Shown here one piece after another: positions 34,191 through 46,010 of a stretch of 64,000 bases of DNA; position 1 is the stretch's first letter; every line of letters begins with the position of its first letter. Source of the DNA: Panicum virgatum (taxonomy: Eukaryota > Streptophyta > Magnoliopsida > Poales > Poaceae); NCBI RefSeq assembly GCF_016808335.1, contig NC_053140.1, forward strand, positions 30,374,086-30,438,085. The letters are read 5' to 3'. Under the pieces are notes generated by a model. That model did no database searches. It saw only the letters and a list, made by a program, of their open reading frames with translations, and was not told where the DNA came from. The translations under genes and the position numbers were made by a program.

Positions 34191-34424
34191 GTGGCACCTA
34201 CTGTAGGAGCACGCAAAAGGTCAATTACAATGTGAATTCGCCATAGTTCGTTATCAATTGCATGAAATCAAGATGCCTTCCAGAAATCAATATCCATGTT
34301 AATCAGTACGGTCACCCCACTTTTATTTTCATAAATATCAATACCCAGCTAGATTAAAAGGGAGCACATATTGTACTCTAAAAAATACCACAAATTCCCT
34401 TAAATTTAAATTTTAATAACCTCA

Positions 34425-34436
34425 GCTCTGATACCA
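34425..34436 (-). other. tRNA-Met primer binding site, intact
   Basis: The minus strand reads TGGTATCAGAGC, complementary to the 3' end of initiator tRNA-Met, which caulimovirids use to start minus-strand DNA. It marks nucleotide 1 of the viral map. Confidence 0.9.
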
Positions 34437-35495
34437 GTAGTACAAAAGAACACGGGGATTCGAAATTCAAATTCAAAATCACGAGTTACTATTCACGACA
34501 CTATTCAAATTCAGCCGTTACTATTCAAATTCGTGGCACTATTCAAAATATCAGATACTATTCAAATTCCGAATATGAATAGCGCTCGAGCACTTCAACT
34601 GAGTGGCTCAGGCACCCAAATTCACTCACTATTCGATGCACTATGCAGAGCACTTTTTGTGATTATGCAAATTATATGGCACTTGATTATGATGAGTGGA
34701 TGCAGTATGGGTGTGCGATGCTATTCAACGATAGCGACCTTCGTGGATGGTGGATGAGTGCATGATTCTTATGCAGGTGATTAGCAGAGTAAAAATTCAA
34801 GGCTAATGAGGCAGCAGCTATTGGGTGATAGCGACGTATGCGGATAGTGCGTGATTAGTGATTGCAGAGTATGGGTAATGTGTGATTCTCAGGATCTTGG
34901 CAGGTTGGCGAAACCAAAATTTCAGCCGGTGGAGTGTCTTATGCTTGTGTAAGTCCTACTCGGTACTCACCGCATGCATCGCTAGCTTGCTTTAGAACCA
35001 GGCCTACCCGGTCTTCTCCCGAACTAACCCCGGCCACGCGTACACAGGACTCAGGCCCTACCGTCTCCCCAGGCAGTTCCACCCGAAGGGAACACTTCTC
35101 TGCGGACACAGGCTCTCTCAGACGCCTCTCCATGGGCTAAACGAGAGCAACTCAACGCAGAGGTTTCTCCTCTAGGGTCCCTAGCGTAGAGACATCACCC
35201 CGTGTGCACGAGCTCAAAGGAAAGCAGGGAAATTCACACGAAAGCTTAATCCATTTCCACAGAGCAAACTTACATACGGCTTTCCCTTTCGGGAAACCCC
35301 AAGCACTTACACAACCGTGGATTACCTTACAGGCGAAGGGCGACTACAGCAGCTCCCTTATTTCTATATTACAATGGGAGTGAGATGGCTACTAATTAGG
35401 TGGAGTGGTGGTGGATGCGCTCTGAGTATTAGGCTCGGTGTCTTCTCTCCTCTTCTTTGTCCGGCCCATGGTCCGTTGCATGCGTCTGGCTTCTC

Positions 35496-35503
35496 CTTTT
35501 ATA
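35496..35503 (-). promoter_or_regulatory. TATA box of common region copy 1
   Basis: The minus strand reads TATAAAAG in a GC-flanked context (cgtcTATAAAAGgag), about 1.07 kb before the primer site. The same box is conserved in three other copies. Probable start of the terminally redundant RNA about 30 bases downstream. Confidence 0.7.
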
Positions 35504-35876
35504 GACGGGAGGAGCCTTCAGGCTTAAGGAAGCGCTGGACACCCGGTGTCTTCAATTATCCTTCTTTACTGTTGCCTGGACAGCTGGACGATAACGCTGC
35601 CTTCAATAATTGTACTGGCTACAGTAGAACTCACTGTTGATATTACTGTTTATTCCTTTTGCATTGTCCACTTCCTTCACGTGATATTCTCTAGATATAT
35701 TCGGGAATATATTCGGTGTATAGTCTTCCACGCCCGAATGATTGATGTCGCAGACATCAAGCAAACACTCTGGCATGCTTATCCTTATCCCACGGTGAAA
35801 TTGTTGATAACTCCTTATCAACACAGATAGGTATCTTAAGTATTAACACATATTTAATTTTCATAATATATAATTC

Positions 35877-36714
35877 TTAATACTCTTGTTGCTGCCCATG
35901 ACCACGAATATCCAGCATATCATCATCAGATATTGGCATATTCATTTTTGATTCATAATCCTTCTTTATATTTTCTTCATAGTCCTTCTTTATGGCATCA
36001 AAATTTTCCTTTATATCATGCTTCACTTCTTGCCATATTTCTTCTTTTATATCTTTCTTCAATTGAGGAATTATTGAATCTAGCCTTTCTTTGATCTTCT
36101 TTTCAACATATTCTTCATTTGATGCTTCTTTTTTTACAGCATCCTTATATGTGGGTATTCTTGAAGGTCCATCTTCTCTTATATTTATTCCAGGCAAGTT
36201 TGTCTTTACCTCATTTGCCTTTCTGTATTTTTGAATATATTCTTTTGCTGCAGGCTCTAGGAAATAATTTATTCCTAAAATATTTCTTGCATATGATAGG
36301 GCTTGATCAATATCTAGATATTTTTTTCCATGATATTCCTCCATCTTTTTCTCTTTCTATTTGCTGGGCTATAACTTCTTCAAAAGTTACATATATTCCT
36401 GGTGTCTTTCCCCTATATATGACATATATGAGTTTCTTTTCTATATTGCTAGATGGATCTTTTGGCTGTATCTTCCCGTTGATCATATGAAAATATTCAG
36501 CTAAACTATTTAATATTGCAAGCATATAACCTCTATCATCTCTCTTATTATTATATTGGAACAAAAAATTATCTAAAACACATTCTTGTATTTCATCTAA
36601 GACAATATGGTCTTTAGGCTTAAATTTATAAGTATTTGGTGGAAAGATTCTTAATCTGTTTTCAGTTCCAAAGCTGAAACTTTCACCACCAGTAGGACTC
36701 ATTCCTCTCTTCAT
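35877..36714 (-). pseudogene. Transactivator-like (viroplasmin-type) ORF of component B, frameshifted
   Basis: Same protein as the intact copy at 46773-47609. Here an A tract near 36326 has one base more than in that copy, so the frame breaks into 36714-36307 and 36344-35877. The ATG overlaps the stop of the RT ORF as ATGA, an arrangement that favours reinitiation. See 46773 for domains. Confidence 0.75.
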
Positions 36715-43874: not shown

Positions 43875-43982
43875 GTCTTTTGGGTATGACTCATCTTTCC
43901 ACTTCTTTATAACAACTGACGCTTTATATTTCTTATCATTTAGCTCTCTTTCTTTTTTAATTTTGTTAAGCCTATAAATTTC

Positions 43983-45059
43983 TCATCTAAAGTAAATCTC
44001 CTTTTCTCTTATAGCAGACCATTCACATAACATAGAAGTATTATATTCATCAGGAATTTTACTTAGCTTTTGCTCATAATGTTTTATTTCATTATCAATG
44101 TCTAATTTTTCCATAAATTCACATACACTATGTCTTCTATTTTCTTCTATATTTGATTCAGAACTAGATGCTTCTAAATCATCCAGACTTTTTTCTTTAT
44201 AATCTACAAACCTAATACAAGTTTGCCCTTTTCTATTTTCATAGCTTATGTAATCTTCAGGCTGTTTTAAAGTCTTTGATTCTATTAAAGCAGCAATATT
44301 CCATTCTTCTCCTGCTCTTTCTTCAGAGCTGATTTTAAGAGGACTCCTAAAATTTATTCCTTTGGATTGCATACTTTCTATTACATTATTCACATTTACT
44401 TTATATCGAGTTCCACTTCTATTGGTTAGTCTTCCAATGAATTCTATGCTTACTAATAAATTGGTACCTTTAAAGTCTTCATAACCTTTGGTCTGAAAAG
44501 CAAATACCATTTTGTCTATAAATTCTTTTATTGGCATTATTAAATCTGGAGCTATATATGTTATTAGCATATTTTCATTCATGTCTCCTTCTAAGAATCC
44601 TAATGATGCCTTGTGTACTGATTCCCATCTTTTATCTAATAGAGTGACTAAAACTTTTGTTCCTAATTTCTTCCTTGTCATTCCTTTAATTCCTATAATA
44701 TACATCCCTTGATGTATGTATTTATATCCTGTATATTTCAATCTTTTCTCAATTTGCTTACTAACAATTCTTAGCTGAACAGGTTCTGTTAAAACACTTA
44801 ATTCAACTTCTCTAGATATTCTGTATAATCCACTTTTATACTCAAACCAACCCATTTGATATAATTGTTGAGGTCTTATTTTCCTTAAAGTGTCCTTCTG
44901 GTATCTTTCAAGGTCACTTTCTACATCTATCATTTCTTCTAAGGTTTCAATTTCGTCACATCCTCCTTTTAATTTATCCATTAGGCTTAAAGGCCTAGTA
45001 TCTTTTTGCACTACCTGGAGACACTGGTCTCCTCTAGTGAGGCTGTCAGATACTTCCAT
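43983..45059 (-). CDS. Component A movement protein (30K superfamily)
   Basis: A 358-codon ORF starting MEVSDSLTRGDQ. Residues ~90-250 carry the caulimovirid movement-protein pattern: LYQMGWFEYKSGLYRISREV, VLVTLLDKRWESVHKASLGF, LIMPIKEFIDKMVFAFQTKG and NLLVSIEFIGRLTNRSGTRY. This protein modifies plasmodesmata for cell-to-cell spread. It overlaps ORF 1 by 49 bases in another frame. The end (YNTSMLCEWSAIREKEIYF) is the block repeated in component B. A frame break separates it from the capsid ORF, which was probably once continuous or closely coupled with it. Confidence 0.8.
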   Translation of the reverse strand: MEVSDSLTRGDQCLQVVQKDTRPLSLMDKLKGGCDEIETLEEMIDVESDLERYQKDTLRKIRPQQLYQMGWFEYKSGLYRISREVELSVLTEPVQLRIVSKQIEKRLKYTGYKYIHQGMYIIGIKGMTRKKLGTKVLVTLLDKRWESVHKASLGFLEGDMNENMLITYIAPDLIMPIKEFIDKMVFAFQTKGYEDFKGTNLLVSIEFIGRLTNRSGTRYKVNVNNVIESMQSKGINFRSPLKISSEERAGEEWNIAALIESKTLKQPEDYISYENRKGQTCIRFVDYKEKSLDDLEASSSESNIEENRRHSVCEFMEKLDIDNEIKHYEQKLSKIPDEYNTSMLCEWSAIREKEIYFR

Positions 45060-45556
45060 TTATCCGAATTTAATGATCTAGTAACCTCTAGTATTCCAGA
45101 TGATGACAACACAATTTCTTTACTATGCTCAGTAATATTAGTACTTTCTAGTTTATTGAATAAATAAGATATATCCCTTTTAATATAATCACTATTTTGA
45201 CTAATCTTTCCCAGAAATATTTTGCTTTCTTCCAAAGCTTGCAAAGCTAATTCTAATTTTTTATTTGCTACCAAATATTGCTCTTCTAGATGCTTATGTT
45301 CTTTCTGTAATTTTTCAAATTTTAATTCTAAATCGTCTTGTCTTTTACCCCAAGTTATGTAAAAGTAATGAATTAAATCAACTATTAAATTTATCTGACC
45401 GTGAGAGGTATGCCATGTATGCTCTTCAGAACCATTTATCCTGCACCTAATATTTATATTTTCTTTATTACTAACAGCCTTTCCGGTATTGACCTCTAAA
45501 TTCAAATAATGTAGCTTTTCAATTTTGACAACGTATTGAAATTCCCTTAAATTCAA
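45011..45556 (-). CDS. Component A ORF 1, coiled-coil protein
   Basis: A 181-codon frame beginning MNLREFQYVVKIEKLHYLN, 16 bases after the primer site, the usual place of ORF 1 in badna-like viruses. Residues 75-130 form a heptad coiled coil (LKFEKLQKEHKHLEEQYLV). Position, size and coiled coil recall the small virion-associated or ORF 1 proteins, but there is no specific match I can name. Component B lacks it; the common sequence stops about 14 bases into this ORF. Confidence 0.65.
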   Translation of the reverse strand: MNLREFQYVVKIEKLHYLNLEVNTGKAVSNKENINIRCRINGSEEHTWHTSHGQINLIVDLIHYFYITWGKRQDDLELKFEKLQKEHKHLEEQYLVANKKLELALQALEESKIFLGKISQNSDYIKRDISYLFNKLESTNITEHSKEIVLSSSGILEVTRSLNSDKWKYLTASLEETSVSR

Positions 45557-45571
45557 ATTTTAATAACCTCG

Positions 45572-46010
45572 GCTCTGATACCAGTAATACAAAAGGAAAC
45601 GCGAATTCAAATTTCAAATTCAAAATCACGAGTTACTATTCACGACACTATTCAAATTCAGCAGTTGCTACTCAAATTCGTGGCACTATTCAAAATATCA
45701 GGTACTATTCAAATTCCGAATATGAATAGCGCTCGAGCACTTCAACCGAGTGGCTCAGGCACCCAAATTCACTCACTATTCGATGCACTATGCAGAGCAT
45801 TTCTTGTGATTATGCAAATTATATGGCACTTGATTATGATGAGTGGATGCAGTATGGGTGTGCGATGCTATTCAACGATAGCGACCTTCGTGGATGGTGG
45901 ATGAGTGCGTGATTCTTATGCAGGTGATTAGCAGAGTAAAAATTCAAGGCTAATGAGGCAGCAGCTATTGGGTGATAGCGACGTATGCGGATAGTGCGTG
46001 ATTAGTGATT
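45572..46010 (-). promoter_or_regulatory. Common region, partial copy 3, with intact primer site, upstream of component A
   Basis: Only the last ~440 bases of the common region are present: the GAATAGT-rich stretch and the primer site TGGTATCAGAGC (45583-45572, minus). At 46010-46011 it switches abruptly to component B RT sequence in the opposite direction. It lacks the promoter part. Confidence 0.8.

What the first reader, a model, noticed from the sequence alone, without database searches (positions are those of the whole stretch)
34374..45583. Two complementary viral components in one locus: a candidate bipartite pararetrovirus
Seen: two head-to-tail viral units, each from a tRNA-Met primer site through ORFs to a shared ~1.4-kb non-coding region. 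A has ORF 1, movement and capsid-like ORFs but no protease or RT; B has protease, RT, RNase H and a transactivator-like ORF but no movement or capsid core. Known: nearly all Caulimoviridae are monopartite, and a bipartite layout has been proposed for some endogenous florendoviruses. Inferred: the ancestor packaged two circular DNAs with a common regulatory region.
Basis: partly seen in the sequence, partly recalled or inferred. Interest (0 to 1): 0.95.

Follow-up and report, generated by a model that had tools for sequence, protein, structure and literature searches.

The report
Two-part ancient grass pararetrovirus
This grass genome carries many fossil copies of two matching halves of an ancient plant virus: one half carries the genes for movement and coat proteins, the other those for copying, and both have the same control region, which suggests that the virus lived as two dependent DNA circles.

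Summary
Two minus-strand units lie head to tail. A (39794-45583) carries ORF1, movement protein, capsid core, zinc finger and an SFKTE domain. B (34437-39793) carries zinc finger, protease, RT, RNase H and a transactivator-like ORF. Their non-coding regions are 97.9% identical.
Neither is private to this locus. In the window's 1.13-Gb genome (probably switchgrass, inferred) the next feature after a capsid unit is SFKTE in 44 of 58, none in 13, RT in 1; 56 of 57 RT units have no capsid upstream (lower-bound searches). No intact one-piece copy was found. Setaria gene models show both kinds.
Non-coding regions interleave between A and B in a tree (less when mixed loci are left out), while a shared coding stretch splits cleanly. 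Both components show purifying selection.
The lineage resembles rice one-piece elements, read as eRTBVL (RTBV-like), at 85-94% in RT parts. My searches list no pair defective on both sides in this lineage. RT components without capsid probably arose twice (p-AU 0.017).
Best reading: a divided-genome, mutually dependent RTBV-like virus; helper dependence is not excluded. New variant of a known kind.

The parts
39794..45583 (-). Component A unit (5,790 nt), primer site to end of non-coding region
45572..45583 (-). tRNA-Met primer binding site of A
45011..45556 (-). ORF1 of A; no family match over its cut-off (PF21593 E 0.001, below cut-off)
43983..45059 (-). Movement protein part of the A polyprotein frame; ends at one in-frame stop
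   Evidence: PF01107; P0001 99% identical
41166..43874 (-). Capsid core, zinc fingers and SFKTE domain of A
   Evidence: PF22909
42519..43487 (-). Capsid core domain
   Evidence: L009, coordinates converted
42156..42332 (-). Zinc finger of A (component-specific sequence)
41169..42077 (-). SFKTE domain (function unknown)
   Evidence: domain named in PMC5491270
39794..41168 (-). Non-coding region of A
34437..39793 (-). Component B unit (5,357 nt)
39782..39793 (-). Primer binding site of B, one substitution
39404..39657 (-). MP tail kept in B, 88% nt identity to A; frame broken by one frameshift
37713..39461 (-). B ORF: CP N-terminus, zinc finger, coiled coil, protease, RT start; ends at one in-frame stop
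39015..39209 (-). Zinc finger of B
   Evidence: L039, coordinates converted
38343..38795 (-). Aspartic protease of B
36711..37703 (-). RT (YIDD motif) and RNase H of B
36307..36714 (-). Transactivator-like ORF (agrees in place with rice eRTBVL ORFz), first part; broken by a frameshift here
35877..36344 (-). Transactivator-like ORF, second part
34437..35879 (-). Non-coding region of B
34371..34436 (-). First ~65 nt of a further unit; homology ends at 34371
45584..46010 (-). End of a further non-coding region upstream of A
46011..48571 (+). Inverted partial B copy (RT/RNase H, one uncut transactivator-like ORF 46773-47609, part of the non-coding region)
48573..49826 (+). Second inverted non-coding region

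Best explanation
A and B are fossils of the two components of an RTBV-like grass pararetrovirus with a divided genome. A supplied movement protein, capsid and the SFKTE protein; B supplied protease, reverse transcriptase, RNase H and the transactivator-like protein. Each had its own primer site and a nearly identical regulatory region, so B's enzymes could copy both and A's capsid could package both. Recombination kept the regulatory regions alike. Shown: the anatomy, the genome-wide separation of capsid and RT, both kinds in Setaria gene models, mixed regulatory regions, purifying selection. Inferred: co-replication, co-packaging and mutual dependence.
For: Census: 58 CP units, next feature within 3 kb SFKTE 44, none 13, RT 1; 57 RT units, 56 without CP upstream. 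The one exception (C17:36338909-36340191) holds only CP residues 1-155 of the query. 28 of 57 RT units have an SFKTE unit within 20 kb; about 0.11 expected for uniform placement. B units flanked by non-coding regions and without CP at two other loci, L069 and L071. A-type CPs form a clade of 7 with two undetermined Setaria rows (100/99), B-type proteases a clade (100/99), B-type RTs a clade (SH-aLRT 99). Setaria has A-type (P0006, P0007) and B-type (P0019) gene models. Non-coding tree of 34 loci: 11 label changes against 11.6 shuffled; median identity A-B 92.1, A-A 91.7, B-B 92.1. Zinc finger tree of 54 rows: one change, 100/100, median A-B 61.9 against 95 within. Median dN/dS over pairs with dS above 0.03: CP 0.18, SFKTE 0.28, PR 0.20, RT parts 0.12 and 0.17.
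Against: No episomal form was found: four scans of IMG/VR, which reach close relatives only, gave none. One-piece relatives exist elsewhere and could have been helpers. Part of the A/B mixing comes from pairs at one locus: with loci from single-type clusters only (21 rows) there are 4 changes against 7.0 shuffled, and no shuffle of 300 went below 4. 29 of 57 RT units and 29 of 55 SFKTE units have no partner within 20 kb, and integration hot spots could raise co-location. A-type P0005 falls outside the A clade in the CP tree. Two RT loci keep MP but lack CP, so the split was not always as clean as in the window. Genome searches give lower bounds.
Confidence: 0.67

Rival explanations
1. A and B are both defective or satellite genomes that depended on an autonomous one-piece RTBV-like helper, as proposed for rice eRTBVL2 with eRTBVL.
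For: One-piece polyproteins of 1711-1736 aa exist in databases (P0064, P0067, P0070-72); rice one-piece gene models are 85-94% identical in RT parts. PMC5491270 (parts 1-3 of 8 read) describes such a commensal pair.
Against: No intact one-piece unit among 58 CP and 57 RT units of this genome, though a helper should have been captured too. Neither component needs a helper if both are present.
Confidence: 0.2
2. After one capture the elements spread inside the plant genome by duplication, and gene conversion made the non-coding regions alike.
For: Clusters and inverted copies are common; A and B of one locus often have nearest non-coding regions, and mixing weakens without mixed loci.
Against: Median dN/dS of 0.12-0.28 between copies, related A and B in Setaria gene models, no integrase among the Pfam matches of nine ORFs.
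Confidence: 0.08
3. Deletions private to this locus, or an assembly artefact.
For: The locus is rearranged.
Against: The same two architectures recur genome-wide and in independent database sequences.
Confidence: 0.02

Closest known systems
eRTBVL / eRTBVL2 of rice (Chen 2017, PMC5491270)
   Same: RTBV-like lineage (inferred); A is like eRTBVL2 (MP, CP, SFKTE, no RT); the third ORF sits after RNase H; shared intergenic region
   Different: There the partner is an autonomous one-piece virus and eRTBVL2 keeps PR. Here A has no PR match, and B lacks CP and MP core, so both are defective
ePVCVL / ePVCVL2 of rice, sorghum and switchgrass (PMC5491270); bipartite florendoviruses OsatBV, SbicV, VvinBV, VvinDV (PMC4241990; its letters run the other way, component A holding the RT)
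   Same: Two complementary defective components with nearly identical intergenic regions; SFKTE on the capsid component ePVCVL; the sorghum/switchgrass ePVCVL2 lacks MP and CP
   Different: Judged a different lineage by RT and CP kinship to rice one-piece elements; our units are 5.8 and 5.4 kb, theirs 5.5-6.9 kb in the 2014 passages, and the sorghum/switchgrass pair runs to at least about 6.7 and 6.3 kb (positions given in PMC5491270). No sequence of theirs was compared
Tentative genus Orendovirus (RTBV-like endogenous viruses)
   Same: Kinship of RT to Oryza, Aegilops and Triticum gene models; ORFz-like third ORF
   Different: Described as one-piece with MP-CP-RT in one ORF (PMC5902531, passages)

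Membership tests
Caulimoviridae | RT-RNase H of the family | tested here: met
   PF00078, PF17917; best solved relative 8r0s 'Enzymatic polyprotein', E 2e-77, which I take from recall to be CaMV
Caulimoviridae | 30K movement protein and caulimovirus coat domain | tested here: met
   PF01107 and PF22909 on A only
Caulimoviridae | tRNA-Met primer site at unit start | tested here: met
   one substitution in B
Caulimoviridae | no integrase | tested here: met
   no integrase among Pfam matches of nine ORFs
Caulimoviridae | circular episomal DNA in particles | not testable with these tools
   no IMG/VR contig found in four scans
eRTBVL / Orendovirus (RTBV-like) | RT and CP kinship to rice one-piece elements | tested here: met
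   rice P0012, P0022, P0023, P0074, P0075: 85-94% in the RT parts (one 17-residue overlap aside), CP 75-86% in P0012, P0061, P0073, P0074, P0075. These are gene models; that they are eRTBVL is inferred from their one-piece layout, no eRTBVL or RTBV record was in hand
eRTBVL / Orendovirus (RTBV-like) | one-piece ORFy MP-CP-PR-RT-RH | tested here: not met
   0 intact among 58 CP and 57 RT units
eRTBVL / Orendovirus (RTBV-like) | ORFz with TAV-like motif after RNase H | tested here: inconclusive
   weak Cauli_VI match at the same place in the window and in P0021, P0022, P0031, P0075, each below the cut-off; none reported for P0018; ORFz described in PMC6179347 (passages)
Bipartite florendovirus | RT and CP group with florendoviruses | tested here: inconclusive
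   no florendovirus reference was in hand; kinship is to rice one-piece elements instead
Divided-genome or mutualistic PRV pair | complementary domains, each component with a near-identical intergenic region | tested here: met
Divided-genome or mutualistic PRV pair | intergenic regions exchanged between components | tested here: met
   weaker
Divided-genome or mutualistic PRV pair | co-replication and co-packaging | not testable with these tools
   no live virus

The most novel reading that the evidence does not exclude
The RTBV-like lineage split its genome repeatedly. Pair A1/B1 is the one in the window; a more divergent pair A2/B2 lies in the same genome, and a possible intermediate with MP but no CP is seen at two loci. 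In 44 of the 45 capsid units of this genome that have a next feature, that feature is SFKTE in place of the RT block, so SFKTE may be the function that makes a divided genome work, for instance co-packaging or joint transmission.
Probability: 0.35. Interest if true: 0.78.

Novelty: new variant of a known kind. Interest (0 to 1): 0.63.

Why it matters
Divided genomes are common in plant RNA viruses, but among reverse-transcribing viruses the passages I read report them only from fossils, mostly florendoviruses (PMC4241990, PMC10377300). A second lineage that reached the same layout, with many copies, a second host genus (Setaria) and a possible intermediate, makes it possible to ask how and in what order a pararetrovirus splits its genome, and why the same SFKTE domain sits on the capsid half.

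Tried and rejected
Rejected: private deletion or artefact. Judged unlikely without a direct comparison: florendovirus identity and identity with the published switchgrass ePVCVL pair (lengths). Led nowhere: IMG/VR scans with RT, MP, CP and SFKTE pieces; PDB sequence search with the A ORF; Pfam on the SFKTE domain, 0 families; AlphaFold of SFKTE, mean pLDDT 31.5, so no fold search was made. A search with the right flank, for an empty homeologous site, never got an answer, nor did searches with the protease and the non-coding region, so insertion age, independence of flanks and the number of non-coding copies are untested. One origin of all A-type CPs is not rejected (p-AU 0.199). The rejection for the RT side (p-AU 0.017) used a chosen set of 22 rows and a group formed after seeing the tree. 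Rows dropped: of 122 RT matches 44 retrotransposon matches at 34-36% were left out; one search used 56 of the other 78 RT, 52 of 73 SFKTE and 78 of 81 CP rows; one search repeats the census with all 78 RT, 81 CP, 73 SFKTE and 32 MP rows. Non-coding tree: 34 rows out of the 71 loci held, those with a usable stretch next to SFKTE or the third ORF. RT tree: 13 own loci of a chosen 14 passed the length limit. The Azf row mixes A and B and is not used.
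Full report
What is there. The two units lie on the minus strand, A at 39794-45583 and B at 34437-39793. A holds ORF1, the movement protein, the caulimovirus coat domain and a C-terminal stretch that contains the residues SFKTE, and gave no protease or RT match. B holds a weak protease match, RT, RNase H and an ORF with a weak Cauli_VI match, and no coat domain. Shared between the units are the non-coding region (1346 of 1375 aligned bases identical), a 43-nt stretch at the primer site (98%), the MP tail (88%) and the zinc finger (75%). 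The copies are damaged: A's polyprotein frame has one in-frame stop; B's has one frameshift near its start and one in-frame stop in RT; the third ORF is broken in unit B but uncut in the inverted copy at 46773-47609.

Host. The window is G000:C5:30374086-30438085 in an assembly of 1,129,937,113 bases.

Relatives. Protein searches gave 7, 54 and 16 hits. Domain maps of all 75 distinct proteins show three layouts. A-type (CP or MP-CP, then SFKTE): P0001-P0007. B-type (zinc finger, protease and mostly RT with no CP core, in five preceded by the MP tail): P0008-P0011, P0019, P0041, P0058. One-piece (MP, CP, PR, RT, RNase H in one ORF of 1711-1736 aa): P0064, P0067, P0070, P0071, P0072, with further partial ones. 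P0001 is 97% and P0008 99% identical to the window over the scored regions; both stand for over 100 member sequences from ENA. Setaria supplies A-type P0006 (viridis) and P0007 (italica) and B-type P0019 (italica); these are gene models, so splicing by the annotator cannot be excluded. Rice gene models P0012, P0074 and P0075 join CP to PR or RT. Since ePVCVL and eRTBVL2 lack RT and ePVCVL2 lacks CP (PMC5491270, parts 1-3 of 8 and passages read), they are best read as eRTBVL; that is an inference, as no RTBV or eRTBVL record was in hand. The third ORF agrees in place with eRTBVL ORFz, for which a TAV motif is reported (PMC6179347, passages).

Trees. In the CP tree (21 rows) the window, P0001, P0002, P0006, P0007 and the undetermined Setaria proteins P0062 and P0063 form a clade (100/99); A-type P0005 lies outside, but one clade of A-types is not rejected (15 rows, p-AU 0.199). 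In the protease tree (57 rows) the window, P0008-P0011, P0019, P0030 and own-genome loci form a clade of 28 (100/99); P0041, P0036, P0038 and own loci L055, L061 and L065 form a second clade (100/100). Holding both together is rejected (22 chosen rows, p-AU 0.017), though the group was formed after seeing the tree. In the RT tree (43 rows, quick method) the main B clade has 99 and the divergent loci L055, L060, L061, L065 stand apart with P0053. So RT components without capsid probably arose at least twice, with the reserve that the second group rests for its layout on one database protein (P0041, 395 aa) and on the lack of a CP match upstream of its loci.

Genome census. SFKTE gave 73 matches, RT 122, of which 78 at 53% identity or more and 44 retrotransposons at 34-36%, CP core 81, MP 32. 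Merged: 58 CP, 57 RT, 55 SFKTE and 32 MP units. The next feature within 3 kb downstream of a CP unit is SFKTE in 44, nothing in 13 and RT in 1; for the 44 CP units of at least 850 nt the figures are 40, 3 and 1. In one-piece P0064 the distance from CP core to the RT piece is 575 residues, about 1.7 kb, so the 3-kb limit would have caught it. The one exception, C17:36338909-36340191, holds only residues 1-155 of the CP query. 56 of 57 RT units have no CP upstream; two (C15, C16) have MP upstream. Reading those two stretches (L072, L073) shows MP, the CP N-terminus and then the zinc finger, with CP core missing: the layout that PMC5491270 gives for the rice ePVCVL2. L066, at the C16 locus, is sister to the main B clade in the protease tree (86/76). 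It may be an intermediate that lost CP but not yet MP; two loci are few, and private loss is possible.

A second pair. SFKTE matches at 59-60% identity lie near the divergent RT loci in three clusters (C7:19.63 Mb, C11:21.63-21.66 Mb, C3:41.28 Mb). At two of these capsid units (C7:19627890, C11:21656909) the SFKTE match begins 807 and 763 nt after CP, at query residues 41 and 38, against about 280 nt and residue 1 in the main type, so the stretch between is longer by some 370-410 nt. P0005 likewise has 263 residues between CP core and SFKTE against 148 in P0001. That P0005 and these loci are one group is inferred.

Partnership. Of 57 RT units 28 have an SFKTE unit within 20 kb, against 0.11 expected for uniform placement; hot spots for integration would weaken this. 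In a tree of the first ~600 nt of the non-coding region (18 A, 16 B) the labels change 11 times, as in shuffles (11.6), and median identity between components equals that within them (92.1 against 91.7 and 92.1). The zinc finger, a coding stretch that both share, splits perfectly (28 A, 26 B; one change, 100/100; medians 61.9% between, 95% within). With one random row per cluster (20 clusters, 200 draws) the non-coding tree needs 5.9 changes on average against 6.7 shuffled; with rows from single-type clusters only (21 rows) 4 against 7.0, the lowest value of the shuffles. So exchange of regulatory regions is supported, but part of the mixing is within loci. Pairwise dN/dS (Nei-Gojobori, pairs with dS above 0.03, not independent) has medians of 0.18 for CP, 0.28 for SFKTE, 0.20 for PR and 0.12 and 0.17 for the RT parts: both components evolved under constraint.

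How it most likely worked. B's RT copied both pregenomic RNAs from their common primer site; A's capsid packaged both; A's movement protein and B's transactivator-like protein served both. These steps are inferred from the families' known functions. The deletion in B takes out the capsid core but leaves the acidic flank and zinc finger; in A the PR-RT-RH block is replaced by SFKTE. Whether the two circles travelled together (bipartite) or as two mutually dependent viruses cannot be decided from fossils. Dependence of both on a one-piece helper is the main rival.

Print. Bipartite fossils are described for florendoviruses (PMC4241990, PMC9719215, PMC10377300; passages read; the last also names sugar beet) and non-autonomous partners for rice eRTBVL2 and grass ePVCVL (PMC5491270). 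My searches (two searches listed 20 of 493 and 15 of 24 papers) list no paper on a doubly defective pair in the RTBV-like lineage. PMC5766536, PMC5902531, PMC13308828 and PMC9794742 were seen as passages (the last also as outline), PMC10641527 only as a listing. Most subscription papers are not in the library, and I did not see the 2010 description of Orendovirus.

Noticed in passing
G000:C18:28832058-28832591 (L070): An RT fragment lies in an open frame of 1877 aa; the RT/RNase H match is split by about 1.6 kb, perhaps an insertion or a chimeric ORF.
   Followed up: no
P0009 (database protein): PR and RT are 97-99% identical to the window's B but zinc finger and coil only 83% and 49%, which suggests recombination between B lineages.
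   Followed up: no
window 33194-33442 and 50579-50852: Short inverted repeats that look like MITE or hairpin elements on both sides of the viral locus.
   Followed up: no
window 46773-47609: The transactivator-like ORF of the inverted copy is uncut (278 aa), while in unit B it is broken.
   Followed up: partly
window 45011-45556: ORF1 of A has a sub-threshold match to DUF6853 (PF21593, E 0.001).
   Followed up: no
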